From positions 1 to 46,063 of the forward strand of contig JAJRUV010000053.1 of assembly GCA_024277595.1 (NCBI GenBank): a stretch of DNA of 46,063 nt, written 5' to 3'. Below the pieces are notes generated by a model. It was not told where the DNA came from and made no database searches. It saw only the letters and a program-made list of their open reading frames with translations. This DNA comes from Gammaproteobacteria bacterium. Lineage in GTDB: Bacteria; Pseudomonadota; Gammaproteobacteria; Thiohalospirales; Thiohalospiraceae. The position numbers were made by a program, and so were the translations under genes. Below are positions 6,296 through 46,063 of this stretch, in pieces (the stretch's first letter is position 1; each line of letters opens with the position of its first letter).

Positions 6296-6299
6296 CTAG

Positions 6300-6458
6300 G
6301 AGCCTGTCGGACTTAGGATGAATCTACTGCGGAAAAGCCATTTTGGCCCATTTTTCCGATCATTTTCGTTAAATATACCCAATATTCGCCTCAAATGATC
6401 AATAAAATGGACTCAAAATGGCTTTCCCTCGCCACGATCCCCTAAGTCCGACAGGCTC
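6300..6458. mobile_element. 159-bp miniature element (family A), CTAG/CTGG flanks
   Basis: Perfect 18-bp terminal inverted repeats start GAGCCTGTCGGACTTAGG (6300-6317 and 6441-6458), and subterminal AAAGCCATTTT is also inverted. It is flanked by CTAG (6296-6299) and CTGG (6459-6462). There is no open reading frame. The ends match the left end of the IS1182-like IS at 45815 (GAGTCTGCCGGACTT), so that transposase family probably moved it. Confidence 0.8.
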
Positions 6459-6462
6459 CTGG

Positions 6463-6620
6463 GAGTCTGTCGGGTTTGGGTAATCGTAGCGAGCTGGTGG
6501 AGATCGAGTCAAAATATTTCCGGTTTTGAGGCGAATAGTGGGGCTATTTAACGAAAAACCGGGGATATTTTGGCCGCTCTCCCATCAGCGCAGTAGATTA
6601 TCCCCAAATCCGACAGACTC
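6463..6620. mobile_element. 158-bp miniature element (family B, copy 1), CTGG flanks
   Basis: Terminal repeats GAGTCTGTCGGGTTTGGG (6463-6480) and its inverse (6603-6620) differ at one of 18 positions. CTGG flanks both sides (6459-6462 and 6621-6624). The left CTGG is shared with the family A element, so the two stand in direct tandem. It is nearly identical to 30267-30425. Non-coding. Confidence 0.85.
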
Positions 6621-6805
6621 CTGGCGAATACTGAGGAAGCAGAAATCTGCGCAGGAGGAGGTACTACGCATTGAATGGAACCCGGAAATGGCAGTTACAC
6701 CGCCGGGACAACTGCTTTTTTGTTCGATTTTTGAAACCAGGCAGCCATTTTAGCCACTGAAAATCTATCGGATTCAGGATAAGAAAACTGCCCCGGTTGC
6801 TATTA

Positions 6806-30169: not shown

Positions 30170-30266
30170 ACCGATATTATATTCTGCAATTTAGTGTAGA
30201 GACACAGAGAGCACAAAAACTGCAGAAAAAACCGGCTTCTATTTAACTGGAATTCAGGTTATCTAG

Positions 30267-30425
30267 GAGTCTGTCGGGTTTGGGTAATCGTAGCGAGCTG
30301 GTGGGAGATCGAGTCAAAATGTTTCCGGTTTTGAGGCGAATAGTGGGGCTATTTAATGAAAAACCGGGGACATTTTGGCCGCTCTCCCATCAGTGCAGTA
30401 GATTATTCCCAAATCCGACAGACTC
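30267..30425. mobile_element. 159-bp miniature element (family B, copy 2), CTAG on both sides
   Basis: Ends GAGTCTGTCGGGTTTGGG and its near-perfect inverse; CTAG at 30263-30266 and 30426-30429. It is almost identical to 6463-6620. The right CTAG is shared with the family D element that follows. Confidence 0.9.
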
Positions 30426-30429
30426 CTAG

Positions 30430-30587
30430 TACTCCGTCAAGGTGATAAATCAGGATACAGCGCTCCTGTGGTGTTTCGCAGCAAGGCGCAGTGTACAGGC
30501 AATGGCTGTCGCCCTTGTCAAACACTGCAACGCCGCAGCGGGACACCACAGGAGCGCTGTATCCTGATTTATCACCTTGACGGAGTG
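30430..30587. mobile_element. 158-bp miniature element (family D) with 44-bp inverted ends
   Basis: The ends (30431-30474 and 30543-30586) are perfect 44-bp inverted repeats beginning ACTCCGTCAAGGTGATAAAT. CTAG flanks both sides (30426-30429 and 30588-30591). The interior is non-coding. A diverged copy lies at 1-103. The right CTAG supplies the TAG stop codon of the GGDEF/EAL gene. Confidence 0.9.
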
Positions 30588-32984
30588 CTAGCCTGCCTGG
30601 TGAGTCAACTGCGTCTTGCCGGAATCCAGATTCCAGTGGGTGGTCATCATCCACGCAGAAAGCTCTTTCGCGGGCATCGGCTTGCAGACATAGTAGCCCT
30701 GCACTACATCACACCCCAGATCGGCAATCATATTCCAGGTTGCCTCATCTTCGACACCTTCCGCAACAACTGTCAGACCCAGATTGTGAGACAGACTGGC
30801 AATCAGGTGGACAATTTTGGCGTCACTCTCTCCCTGCATCATCTCCTGTATAAAACTGCGATCAATCTTCAGCTCACTGACCGGGAGGGTTTTGAGATAG
30901 GCCAGCGATGAGTAACCGGTGCCAAAATCATCCACAGACAGAGCAACATCCATATCCTGCAGTTTTTTCAGCGTGGCGAGCGCCACCTCCGGATCAAGCA
31001 TCAGGTTGCTTTCAGTTATTTCCAGTACCAACCGCTCTGGCGGGACTTTCCACTTTTTCAGAAGCCGCTGCACCTGGCCGGGTAGATCCTTGTCCAGCAG
31101 ATTATGCACGGACAGATTGACCGAGACGGTAATATCGTGCCCTTGCAACCCCCAAATACTGGCCTGCCGTAACGCCTGATTGATCGCCCAGACAGTCAGT
31201 GGGCGAATCAACCCTGTCTGCTCTGCCAGCGGAATAAACTCCATCGGTGGCAACAAGCCCTGTTGCGGGTGCTGCCAACGCACCAGTGCTTCAACACCAA
31301 TGATGTCTTTTTTGGCTATGTTTATCTGTGGCTGGTAGTGAAGAACCAGCTCTCCGGCTGAAATTGCCCGGCGCAGATCGCCCACCAGCTTCAGGCGGCG
31401 CACGCTGTAGGGATCGCTTTCGCTCTTGTATACGGCAAATCCGCTCTTGCGCTGTTTTGCATGGCGCATGGCCACATCTGCCCGGCGCATCAACAGGGAG
31501 GTATCCCTGCCATGATCCGGGAAAGCGACCATGCCAATGCTGACACCAATCTCAATCTTTACCTCATCAATCTCGACCGGTGACAGGAAAATTTTTTGAA
31601 TTCCACGTACAGCCTCCATTGCCTTCCGCGCCCCGGACGATAACAGCAGAACGACAAACTCGCCACCACCCGGATGGCTGATAAAGCAGGATTCAGATAG
31701 TGCTGCACGAAGCCGATCAGCGACTTCCCGCAACACCGCATCACCTACTTCGTGGCCAAGAGTATCATTGATTTCGCCGAGCCGGTCCAGGTCAAGCAGC
31801 ATTACCACAAAAGGTTCTTTTTCCCGGCTTGCCTGCACGATAGCCTGGTTGATACGACTATCCAACCGCTTGCGGTTTGGCAGCCCTGTCAGACCGTCAT
31901 GGGTTGCAAGATGCTCCAGCTCCTTGATATGGCGTTCCTGGATGGCAGCACGGGCTTGACTCTCTTCGGCCACTATTTCACGCCACTTGCCCATCTGGTT
32001 TTCCGCCCGGCCGAGAATAATGTAAAACAGCCAGGTCAACCCCGCTCCAATCAGCAAGGCAACCACGGACATTATCTTGATTGCTCCAACGGTATTCTGA
32101 TAGTGGGCAGTCACATCCTCTGTTACCAGCAAGTGCCCCACAATATGATGTCGCTTGTCTTGCAACGGTATCTGCCCGATACGATAGTGATTGTCCCTGA
32201 CTGAAACAGTGATAATTTTTAACGGTTCGTGCTGCAACTGCCGGATTACCATTTCGAGCGACTGCTTCGGCAATAGGGATCGGGTTCGAAACGGAATAAC
32301 CATTCCCGGATACTGATCCCAGGCGGGCAACCCCTCCCGCTGAGCCACATTCTCCCACAACACCCGACTCAGGCTCGGTTTGGCAAGGCCGACATAGAGG
32401 TCCACTTGATTGACGGACGCCACTTGATGGAACAGGGCGTTAATATTTTCTCCAATCTCAATGTAACCCCGCAGCCGATTGTTCAGGCGAACGGGGAGCA
32501 CCGCCCGCAACACAAGTTGACCCGCAGTATCAAGCTCCACTCCGTACGCAACCTTGCCACTCTCCATCGCGTCCAGCACGTTGAGGCTGGTTATTTTACC
32601 ACCATAACGTCCTGGCTCATGTACGCGCACCAGGTTGCTTCGCTTGGCATCATGAAACGCCAGATGACTTATGGAGTGACGGGATTGCAGACGCTGAAAC
32701 AACGGCATGGCTACCTTCAACAACCTTTTCCGGTCACGTTTATGCAGCGCATGAATAATACGCCGATCGGCCACAACAAGTTCCAGCGCACTTTGCAGCT
32801 GCTCGGTATGCTCCTGGAGCAGTGCCTGGTAAGTCTGTTCAATAACCTGCAGATTGTCTCTCAATTGCTGATCAATATTGTTGTTCTGCTCCCGATAGAC
32901 TCCGAACAAAAACAAGACGAACAGAACAACTCCACCCACAACAAAAGGCAAAATAATCCGGAGCTTGAGTCTTATATTCGTCAT
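30588..32984 (-). CDS. membrane-bound GGDEF/EAL protein, probably a c-di-GMP phosphodiesterase
   Basis: The 798-residue protein has a membrane helix (about 7-30), a periplasmic sensor domain (about 31-290, helical then mixed), a second helix (about 300-320), a GGDEF domain (about 360-530) and an EAL domain (about 540-798). The GGDEF signature reads HPGGGEF, so the cyclase motif is degenerate. The EAL domain keeps EALVRW, NLSVHNL, EITES, DDFGTGYSS, LKIDRSF, AEGVED and QGYYVCKPM, all needed for cleaving c-di-GMP. It is therefore likely a phosphodiesterase, with the first domain perhaps acting as a GTP sensor. The stop codon TAG is part of the CTAG target of the family D element. Confidence 0.92.
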   Translation of the reverse strand: MTNIRLKLRIILPFVVGGVVLFVLFLFGVYREQNNNIDQQLRDNLQVIEQTYQALLQEHTEQLQSALELVVADRRIIHALHKRDRKRLLKVAMPLFQRLQSRHSISHLAFHDAKRSNLVRVHEPGRYGGKITSLNVLDAMESGKVAYGVELDTAGQLVLRAVLPVRLNNRLRGYIEIGENINALFHQVASVNQVDLYVGLAKPSLSRVLWENVAQREGLPAWDQYPGMVIPFRTRSLLPKQSLEMVIRQLQHEPLKIITVSVRDNHYRIGQIPLQDKRHHIVGHLLVTEDVTAHYQNTVGAIKIMSVVALLIGAGLTWLFYIILGRAENQMGKWREIVAEESQARAAIQERHIKELEHLATHDGLTGLPNRKRLDSRINQAIVQASREKEPFVVMLLDLDRLGEINDTLGHEVGDAVLREVADRLRAALSESCFISHPGGGEFVVLLLSSGARKAMEAVRGIQKIFLSPVEIDEVKIEIGVSIGMVAFPDHGRDTSLLMRRADVAMRHAKQRKSGFAVYKSESDPYSVRRLKLVGDLRRAISAGELVLHYQPQINIAKKDIIGVEALVRWQHPQQGLLPPMEFIPLAEQTGLIRPLTVWAINQALRQASIWGLQGHDITVSVNLSVHNLLDKDLPGQVQRLLKKWKVPPERLVLEITESNLMLDPEVALATLKKLQDMDVALSVDDFGTGYSSLAYLKTLPVSELKIDRSFIQEMMQGESDAKIVHLIASLSHNLGLTVVAEGVEDEATWNMIADLGCDVVQGYYVCKPMPAKELSAWMMTTHWNLDSGKTQLTHQAG

Positions 32985-45035: not shown

Positions 45036-45814
45036 GGGCTCTTCAGGAAAATTCGTGGGTAAAAATATAGCGTAATCACAACGAGAGAGGTGGTTTTTCC
45101 AGGGTTTTGAAGGTGGAGCATCCTGCCCCCACTCTGAGAAGATGGAAGTGCAAACTAACCGTCTGACAGAGAGAAAGGAACAGGATGCAGATAAAGACTA
45201 TCCTCAATCGCGTACAGAAATTCAAATCCTTTGTGTACGGAACGGTACGCTGGGTTGAAGACGCTTCAATTCCGACCCTTGAGGTGGAGGTACAGCCCCG
45301 CTTGAATAGTCGCCCGGTGTGTAGCGATTGTGGGCACAAAAGGCCGGGATACGACAGGCTGCCGGAGCGGCGCTTCGAGTTTATTCCAATGTGGGGCAAC
45401 AAGGTGTTTTTTCCTTATGCGCCGCGCCGGGTTGACTGTCCAGACTGCGGTATCCGGGTAGAGCGCATGCCCTGGGTATCGGGTAAACACCGACTGACCG
45501 AGGCCTATGCGTGGTTTCTGTCCGGTTGGGCGAAGCGGCTGAGCTGAAAGGAAGTTGCCGAGGCATTTCGTACCACCTGGAATCATGTATTCCACTCGGT
45601 GGAGCGGGCCGTGACCTGGGAGCGGGCGCATCAGGATCTGAGTCATGTGACGGCCATTGGCGTTGACGAGATTGCCTGGCAGCGTGGTCACCGTTATTTG
45701 ACGCTGGTCTACCAGATTGATGAACACTGCAAGCGATTATTGTGGGTTGGCGAGAAGCGCATGGTCAAGACATTACTGCGATTCTTCCGCTGGTTTGGCA
45801 AGGAGCGCCGCTAG
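45036..45814 (+). mobile_element. ISL3-family insertion sequence, truncated on the right
   Basis: The left end is GGGCTCTTCAGGAAAATTCG (45036), like ISL3-family terminal repeats. 149 nt later the transposase gene begins. The element is cut at 45814 by the IS1182-like IS, which starts just past the CTAG at 45811-45814. The right end is not in the window, so it may lie beyond the second IS. Confidence 0.75.
45185..45814 (+). pseudogene. ISL3-family transposase, nonsense mutation and truncation
   Basis: Codons 1-120 encode the N-terminal zinc-binding part, with CSDCG (about 39-43) and CPDCG (about 80-84), and a helix-turn-helix region. At 45545-45547 TGA replaces what is normally TGG in the family (AKRLS-W-KEVAEAF). 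The same frame continues with 'VTAIGVDEIAWQRGHRYLTLVYQID', the DDE segment with its first aspartate, until KERR, where CTAG gives TAG. The rest of the catalytic domain is missing. The enzyme is inactive. Confidence 0.88.
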
Positions 45815-46063
45815 GAGTCTGCCGGACTTTCCGTTTGTAATCCGGTAAAATAACGGTACCCCGAAAGGCCACCCAAAGGGAAGCAAGATGGCTGTTAAAT
45901 TTATTCCTGTCGACCGAGACACCCCCTGTATTTTTCCACCGAGCGTGCAGGATTATCTACCGGACGACCATCTGGCGCGATTTGTGGTGGATATCGTGGA
46001 GCAGCTGGAGCTGAGTCACCTGTCAGCGGCGTACTCGGGTCGAGGCTCCAAACCTTTCCATCC
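45815..46063 (+). mobile_element. IS1182-like insertion sequence, left part, runs off the window
   Basis: It starts GAGTCTGCCGGACTTTCC right after CTAG (45811-45814), inside the ISL3 transposase gene. The end matches the terminal repeats of family A (GAGCCTGTCGGACTT) and B (GAGTCTGTCGG) miniature elements. The transposase gene begins at 45888. Confidence 0.85.
45888..46063 (+). CDS. IS1182-family transposase, N-terminal part
   Basis: The first 58 codons are within the window. MAVKFIPVDRDTPCIFPPSV and 'YLPDDHLARFVVDIVEQLEL' are typical of the N-terminus of IS1182/IS5-superfamily DDE transposases. AGGGAAG precedes the ATG. The DDE catalytic residues would lie beyond the window, so activity cannot be judged. 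It is the best candidate for the enzyme that mobilised the family A/B miniature elements. Confidence 0.85.
   Translation, partial: MAVKFIPVDRDTPCIFPPSVQDYLPDDHLARFVVDIVEQLELSHLSAAYSGRGSKPFH

What the first reader, a model, noticed from the sequence alone, without database searches (positions are those of the whole stretch)
6296..6624. Two miniature elements in direct tandem share one target site and match the ends of the window's IS1182-like IS
Family A (6300-6458) and family B (6463-6620) have 18-bp inverted ends, are separated only by CTGG, and are bounded by CTAG and CTGG. Their ends are near-identical to the start of the IS1182-like IS at 45815 (GAGTCTGCCGGACTT). This suggests non-autonomous derivatives moved by that transposase, with a 4-bp CTRG target preference that allows insertion at the edge of a resident copy.
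Basis: partly seen in the sequence, partly recalled or inferred. Interest (0 to 1): 0.7.

Follow-up and report, generated by a model that had tools for sequence, protein, structure and literature searches.

The report
Gammaproteobacteria-wide hairpin MITE targeting CTAG
The two adjacent ~160-base elements are copies, in opposite orientation, of a small non-coding jumping element that folds into one long hairpin, sits at CTAG sites, carries the ends of IS1182-type insertion sequences, and occurs with the same size and fold in about a quarter of sampled gammaproteobacterial genomes.

Summary
A (6300-6458) and B (6463-6620) have 18-bp inverted ends (B 17/18) and lie between CTAG, CTGG and CTGG. 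They are one family in opposite orientation: A aligns throughout with the reverse complement of B. The genome holds about 60-70 copies. Of 43 complete copies first tabulated, 26 have CTAG on both sides. Orthologous empty sites have one tetramer, so it is a 4-bp duplication. Complete IS1182-family elements elsewhere share both the ends and the CTAG flanks. B's two slightly different ends match, 15/15 each, the ends of another IS1182-type IS in this genome (contigs C21/C86), better than the window's IS at 45815. No intact IS1182 is assembled here. Tandem insertion needs no special mechanism: CTAG is rare (12 in the window, 177 expected) and 5 of the 12 border mobile elements. New here: a covariance model finds the same ~160-nt hairpin in 88 of 369 gammaproteobacterial genomes, with compensatory stem changes and near-invariant unpaired boxes that the IS lack; an IS1182 profile matches only 10 of those 369. 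Verdict: an IS1182-type MITE (known kind), but an unusually widespread, structure-conserving variant with no Rfam match and none found in the papers searched.

The parts
6296..6299 (.). CTAG, left target copy of A
6300..6458 (+). Hairpin MITE copy A (159 bp; 18-bp perfect terminal inverted repeats; one other near-identical copy, on contig C108)
6321..6331 (+). Left internal box AATCTACTGCG of A, largely unpaired, near-invariant across genera
6366..6395 (+). Apical loop region TCGTTAAATA...TATTCGCCTCAAA of A
6428..6437 (+). Right internal box of A (CTCGCCACGA; family consensus CTCGCTACGA)
6459..6462 (.). CTGG shared between A and B
6463..6620 (-). Hairpin MITE copy B (158 bp; same family as A, opposite orientation; dominant subfamily of the genome)
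6484..6493 (-). Right internal box CTCGCTACGA of B
6528..6554 (-). Conserved apical loop of B
6589..6599 (-). Left internal box AATCTACTGCG of B
6621..6624 (.). CTGG, right target copy of B
30267..30425 (-). Third family copy (B subfamily), CTAG on both sides (30263-30266, 30426-30429), abutting another MITE
30430..30587 (.). Different 158-bp CTAG-bounded palindromic element ('D', ends TACTCCGTCAAGG) sharing the CTAG at 30426-30429 with the B copy; CTAG again at 30588-30591
45811..45814 (.). CTAG, left flank of the truncated IS1182-type IS
45815..46063 (+). Left end and first 58 codons of an IS1182-family IS cut by the contig end

Best explanation
A and B are two copies of one miniature inverted-repeat element (MITE) moved in trans by IS1182-family transposases. 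The transposase binds the ~15-18-bp terminal repeats, cuts the element out and inserts it at CTAG (less often CTGG and similar), duplicating 4 bp. Because CTAG is rare, the CTAGs that border resident elements are a large share of the targets, so new copies land at the edge of old ones. For this window the simplest order is: A inserted at CTAG, its right CTAG mutated to CTGG, and B then inserted at that CTGG and duplicated it. B's natural partner here is the C21-type IS1182 element, whose two ends differ in the same way as B's. The rest of the element is a ~160-nt imperfect palindrome whose pairing is kept through compensatory changes while its unpaired boxes and loop sides stay nearly fixed. 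Inferred, not shown: trans mobilisation itself, and that the fold is maintained because it helps the element move or persist, for example because a DNA hairpin or cruciform brings the two ends together.
For: Multicopy, with closely similar recent copies in several genomes. CTAG flanks in this genome and across genera. The L093 site has one tetramer in orthologous empty sites (CTTG in G004, G005 and G007), so 4 bp are duplicated; L080 empty sites agree. Complete IS1182-type IS in several phyla carry the same ends and CTAG flanks, and the two complete transposases tested score above the NF033551 cut-off. B left/right ends match the C21 left and C86 right IS ends 15/15 over the first 15 bases. 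A second end type, GAGGCTGTCCGAGAA, occurs both on an IS1182-type IS (L360) and on hairpins with the same core (L269, Pseudomonas plasmid L350). CTAG scarcity: 12 observed, 177 expected from base composition, 39 from a Markov model, 5 of 12 at element borders. Structure: covariation score 0.387 against 0.117 +/- 0.008 in shuffles, 32 of 50 pairs changed on both sides; boxes and loop sides more conserved than the distal stem, p = 4e-9.
Against: No intact IS1182 gene is assembled in this genome; the copies break at contig ends. Only 4 of the 88 element-bearing genomes in the class sample also have a hit to the IS1182 profile, so most hosts lack an obvious partner now. Nothing beyond the ends is shared with the IS. 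Covariation can arise without selection by arm-to-arm correction, of which L093 and L097 look like cases. Alignment A3 was fitted to the model's structure.
Confidence: 0.85

Rival explanations
1. The hairpin pairing is a by-product: template-switch (quasipalindrome) correction or recombination between inverted copies keeps re-copying one arm onto the other, and the fold itself has no use.
For: In L093 the left arm is the reverse complement of the right arm, and L097 has a shorter stretch of this kind. G-U and A-C departures are about equal in one set (14 vs 18) and lean to A-C in the other (16 vs 32), so there is no sign of an RNA on the modelled strand.
Against: Correction should erase the mismatched internal loops, yet these are the most conserved parts across 27 genomes; only about 2 of some 60 copies in this genome show correction. 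Length stays at about 159-161 in most full-length matches.
Confidence: 0.3
2. The element is a structured RNA gene or regulatory RNA dispersed by an IS.
For: Strong fold, covariation and conserved unpaired segments.
Against: No Rfam family at gathering score, only weak sub-threshold matches; G-U not preferred over A-C on the modelled strand; mixed orientation relative to flanking ORFs (13 vs 22 codirectional). A preference for the other strand (p = 0.03) is not excluded.
Confidence: 0.12
3. Insertion replaces a stem-loop, as proposed for IS1272, or adds no duplication, the element carrying AG...CT itself.
For: CTAG is its own complement, so duplicated and element-borne borders look alike; mixed flanks CCAG/CTAG and CTAG/CTGG are common. 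IS1272 lacks duplications (PMC5678879).
Against: Empty sites keep both flanks with one tetramer and no lost hairpin. At L080 and L139 the gene-side CTAG supplies a stop codon that the CCAG copy could not (my reading of the sequences). B has CTGG on both sides. CCAG occurs at 34 of 156 ends whose element starts with G but 0 of 27 that start with C, a context effect expected of mutation rather than of target choice.
Confidence: 0.07

Closest known systems
MITEs of IS1182-family ISMac2 in Methanosarcina acetivorans (PMC3852290, table)
   Same: About 160 bp, IS1182-type partner, long inverted repeats, 4-bp direct repeats, multicopy
   Different: One archaeon; no conserved fold, covariation or cross-genus distribution was mentioned in the passage read
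IS1182 insertion-sequence family (NF033551)
   Same: Terminal repeats and CTAG borders; members with 4-bp duplications (ISPse1, PMC3281130) or GGCC target repeats (ISPsy36, PMC8027508)
   Different: The element has no transposase and shares only the ends; its internal boxes are not found at IS ends
IS1272 (IS1182 family; PMC5678879)
   Same: Same family of transposase
   Different: IS1272 was reported to replace inverted-repeat targets without duplication; here a 4-bp duplication is seen
MITEPsy1 of Pseudomonas syringae (PMC3189936)
   Same: Short MITE inserting at CTAG (or YTAA) with a 4-nt duplication
   Different: 100 nt, other end sequence, thought to derive from ISPsy2
ERIC, NEMIS and Correia hairpin MITEs (from general knowledge)
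   Same: Dispersed intergenic long imperfect palindromes
   Different: Other sequences and target sites as I recall them; not compared here by sequence

Membership tests
MITE mobilised by IS1182 | Terminal inverted repeats shared with an autonomous IS | tested here: met
   B ends 15/15 with C21/C86 IS ends over 15 bases; a second end type matched by L360
MITE mobilised by IS1182 | Target duplication of the length and sequence made by the IS | tested here: met
   CTAG on both sides of hairpins and of complete IS; single tetramer in empty sites
MITE mobilised by IS1182 | No transposase gene | tested here: met
   Longest stop-free stretch 42-43 codons
MITE mobilised by IS1182 | Internal sequence derived by deletion from the IS | tested here: not met
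   No significant internal similarity to about 100 IS loci; not required of all MITEs
MITE mobilised by IS1182 | Active autonomous partner in the same genome | tested here: inconclusive
   Only truncated IS ends at contig edges (C20, C21, C86, C168); none full length in the assembly
MITE mobilised by IS1182 | Movement shown in trans | not testable with these tools
   Needs a transposition assay
IS1182 family (partner IS) | NF033551 transposase above the curated cut-off | tested here: met
   Complete relatives L204 and L156 score 371 and 364 bits, cut-off 270; this genome's own fragments are too short to pass
IS1272-type IR-replacing transposition | No duplication, target hairpin lost | tested here: not met
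   Empty-site comparison for L093
Known Rfam RNA | Match at gathering score | tested here: not met
   None in 10 loci; weak sub-threshold matches only in the window

The most novel reading that the evidence does not exclude
A coherent class of mobile hairpin DNA of about 160 nt, spread over much of the Gammaproteobacteria, in which the folded DNA itself (pairing plus fixed unpaired boxes) is under selection for mobility or persistence, and which has switched between different IS1182 partners by exchanging only its ends.
Probability: 0.4. Interest if true: 0.78.

Novelty: new variant of a known kind. Interest (0 to 1): 0.62.

Why it matters
MITEs are usually treated as young, host-specific debris of one IS. 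This one keeps length, fold and internal boxes across about 70 genera while its stems turn over by compensatory change, so it offers a natural data set for asking whether hairpin DNA structure matters to a transposon and what IS1182-type transposases recognise. It may also help explain where CTAG sites lie in such genomes, and the CTAG-to-CCAG decay at its borders offers a test of mismatch-repair bias at known, datable sites.

Tried and rejected
Direct orientation of the pair: rejected, B is inverted. Stem-loop replacement: rejected on empty-site evidence. Element-borne AG/CT borders: disfavoured by CTGG on both sides of B, by stop-codon logic at L080 and L139, and by the contrast between elements starting with G and with C. 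Rfam RNA: none at gathering score. Correlation of IS1182 and hairpin across the class: 4 of 10 IS-bearing genomes against 84 of 359 others, uninformative. Plasmids: one record (Pseudomonas sp. MPC6) for an A query and for a G286-type query, none for B; phages none for B; E. coli none for A; 4 stretches in 2.9 million viral contigs by the loop pattern. The end sequences turned up no MITE paper among the 20 listed hits. One 'loci' pattern search had a spacing error and is not used. A first empty-site script used invalid BLAST settings and was rerun, where L104 flanks gave no junction-spanning empty site.

Full report
What is there. A's ends are a perfect 18-bp inverted repeat, B's match at 17 of 18. 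The whole of A aligns with the reverse complement of B, so they are one family in opposite orientation, not two. Each folds into one long hairpin much better than shuffled sequence (-79.9 kcal/mol, z -11.5; -72.1, z -9.1). A third copy lies at 30267-30425.

Copies in the genome. The end motif occurs 128 times in the 2.5-Mb assembly, against 4 for the reversed control. The B subfamily has at least 40 copies at 95-98% identity and A has two. A covariance model lists 129 matches counting both strands, hence about 60-70 copies. Many contigs begin or end inside a copy.

Borders. In the first table of 43 complete copies, 26 had CTAG on both sides and most others differed by one transition. Across genera, 11 of 27 loci in the broad alignment had CTAG on both sides and most others had at least one CTAG-like side. 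For the copy L093, upstream of a tRNA-Ser gene (my reading of the sequence), orthologous sites in G004, G005 and G007 read GCGCTTGTCCC or CGCTTGT at the same place, with one tetramer and both flanks in place. That is a 4-bp duplication, not the stem-loop replacement reported for IS1272 (PMC5678879). In about 23 cases the TAG of the CTAG duplicate coincides with the stop of the longest flanking open frame; this is a crude ORF test, but it fits insertion at amber stops that regenerates the stop.

Decay of the border. Read towards the element, 34 of 156 distinct ends whose element starts with G show CCAG and only 6 CTGG; among 27 ends whose element starts with C, none shows CCAG (Fisher p = 0.002 against intact CTAG). 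At L080 and L139 the gene-side copy is CTAG, where it supplies a stop codon, and the other is CCAG (my reading). This fits CTAGG-to-CCAGG change after insertion, as very-short-patch repair would give. That mechanism is inference: Vsr was not searched for, and the C-type ends come from few genomes.

Who moves it. IS1182-family elements encode a transposase above the NF033551 cut-off. Complete copies in several bacterial groups end in GAGYCTGTCGGACTT or close variants and have CTAG on both sides. In this genome four truncated ends were seen: C20 (the window's 45815), C21, C168 and C86. The C21-type IS, in its complete relatives L200, L204 and L206, has GGATTT at the left and GGGTTT at the right end; B has the same difference, and matches C21 left and C86 right 15/15 over the first 15 bases. 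The window's own IS matches less well (12-13 of 18). A different end type, GAGGCTGTCCGAGAA, occurs on an IS1182-type IS in G120 (L360) and on hairpins with the same core in G005 (L269) and on a Pseudomonas sp. MPC6 plasmid (L350). So the ends follow the transposase while the core stays. No full-length transposase is assembled in the window's genome; since contigs break inside the C21-type IS, a collapsed intact copy is likely but unproven.

Why in tandem. CTAG occurs 12 times in the 46-kb window, against 177 expected from base composition and 39 from a second-order Markov model, and 5 of the 12 border mobile elements. Resident elements thus supply many of the targets. Nine B copies share their CTAG with an unrelated palindromic element 'D' (read from the flanks), and a further pair like A-B lies on contig C78. 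For A-B the most economical history is A at CTAG, decay of its right copy to CTGG, and insertion of B there with duplication of CTGG.

The wider family. The model built from 18 genus-level copies finds matches in 88 of 369 gammaproteobacterial genomes, 70 of 271 genera, many with E below 1e-20 and most full-length matches about 159-161 nt long. In 27 of these loci, one per genome, 94.9% of cells pair, 32 of 50 pairs have changes on both sides, and the covariation score is 0.387 against 0.117 +/- 0.008 in shuffles and at most 0.142 with the partner slid; the alignment was fitted to the structure, which helps pairing, but the slid controls share the same relatedness. The first set of 18 gave 23 of 50 pairs and 0.206 against 0.072. 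Sequence conservation is highest where the hairpin mostly does not pair: ATCTACTGCG on the left arm, CTCGCTACGA on the right arm, and the sides of the apical loop (mean entropy 0.14-0.37 bits against 0.86 in the distal stem, p = 4e-9). These boxes were not found at the ends of the IS loci. In several genomes the copies are 95-99% alike, so amplification is recent.

What keeps the fold. G-U and A-C departures are about equal in one set and lean to A-C in the other, so there is no signature of an RNA on the modelled strand; the opposite strand is not excluded. L093 and L097 show one arm rewritten from the other, so part of the covariation can come from arm correction without selection. Against that as the whole story: the internal mismatches, which correction would erase, are the best conserved parts. 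I favour a DNA-level role, for example a cruciform that aligns the two ends for the transposase, but this is inference.

Prior work. IS1182-type MITEs of about 160 bp with 4-bp repeats are recorded for Methanosarcina (PMC3852290), and CTAG-targeting MITEs for Pseudomonas syringae (PMC3189936). No Rfam match at gathering score and no paper on this hairpin were found in the library searched, which lacks most subscription journals; ISfinder was not available. The kind is known; the breadth and the structural conservation are what is new.

Noticed in passing
30430-30587: A second kind of CTAG-bounded 158-bp palindromic element ('D', ends TACTCCGTCAAGG) abuts the B copy; about nine B copies in the genome share a CTAG with D.
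   Followed up: partly
45185-45547 and 45815: The truncated IS1182-type IS sits at a CTAG just downstream of an ORF that looks like an ISL3-type transposase fragment (read by eye, not searched).
   Followed up: no
L116 (G003), element at 1430-1640: A hairpin copy carries a 51-bp insertion that looks like another small palindrome.
   Followed up: no
L093:509-667 and L097:488-645: Copies in which one arm has been rewritten as the reverse complement of the other, apparent natural cases of quasipalindrome correction.
   Followed up: partly
L273, L280, L291: Shortened copies of about 90-105 bp; L273 keeps the ends and both internal boxes but has lost the apical half.
   Followed up: partly
L308 (G132): A copy flanked by TTAA on both sides within CGGGTTAA...TTAACCCG, a non-CTAG target.
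   Followed up: no
L350, Pseudomonas sp. MPC6 plasmid: A hairpin with the other end type directly abuts, across one CTAG, what looks like another element end (AAGTTCGACAGGCTG).
   Followed up: no
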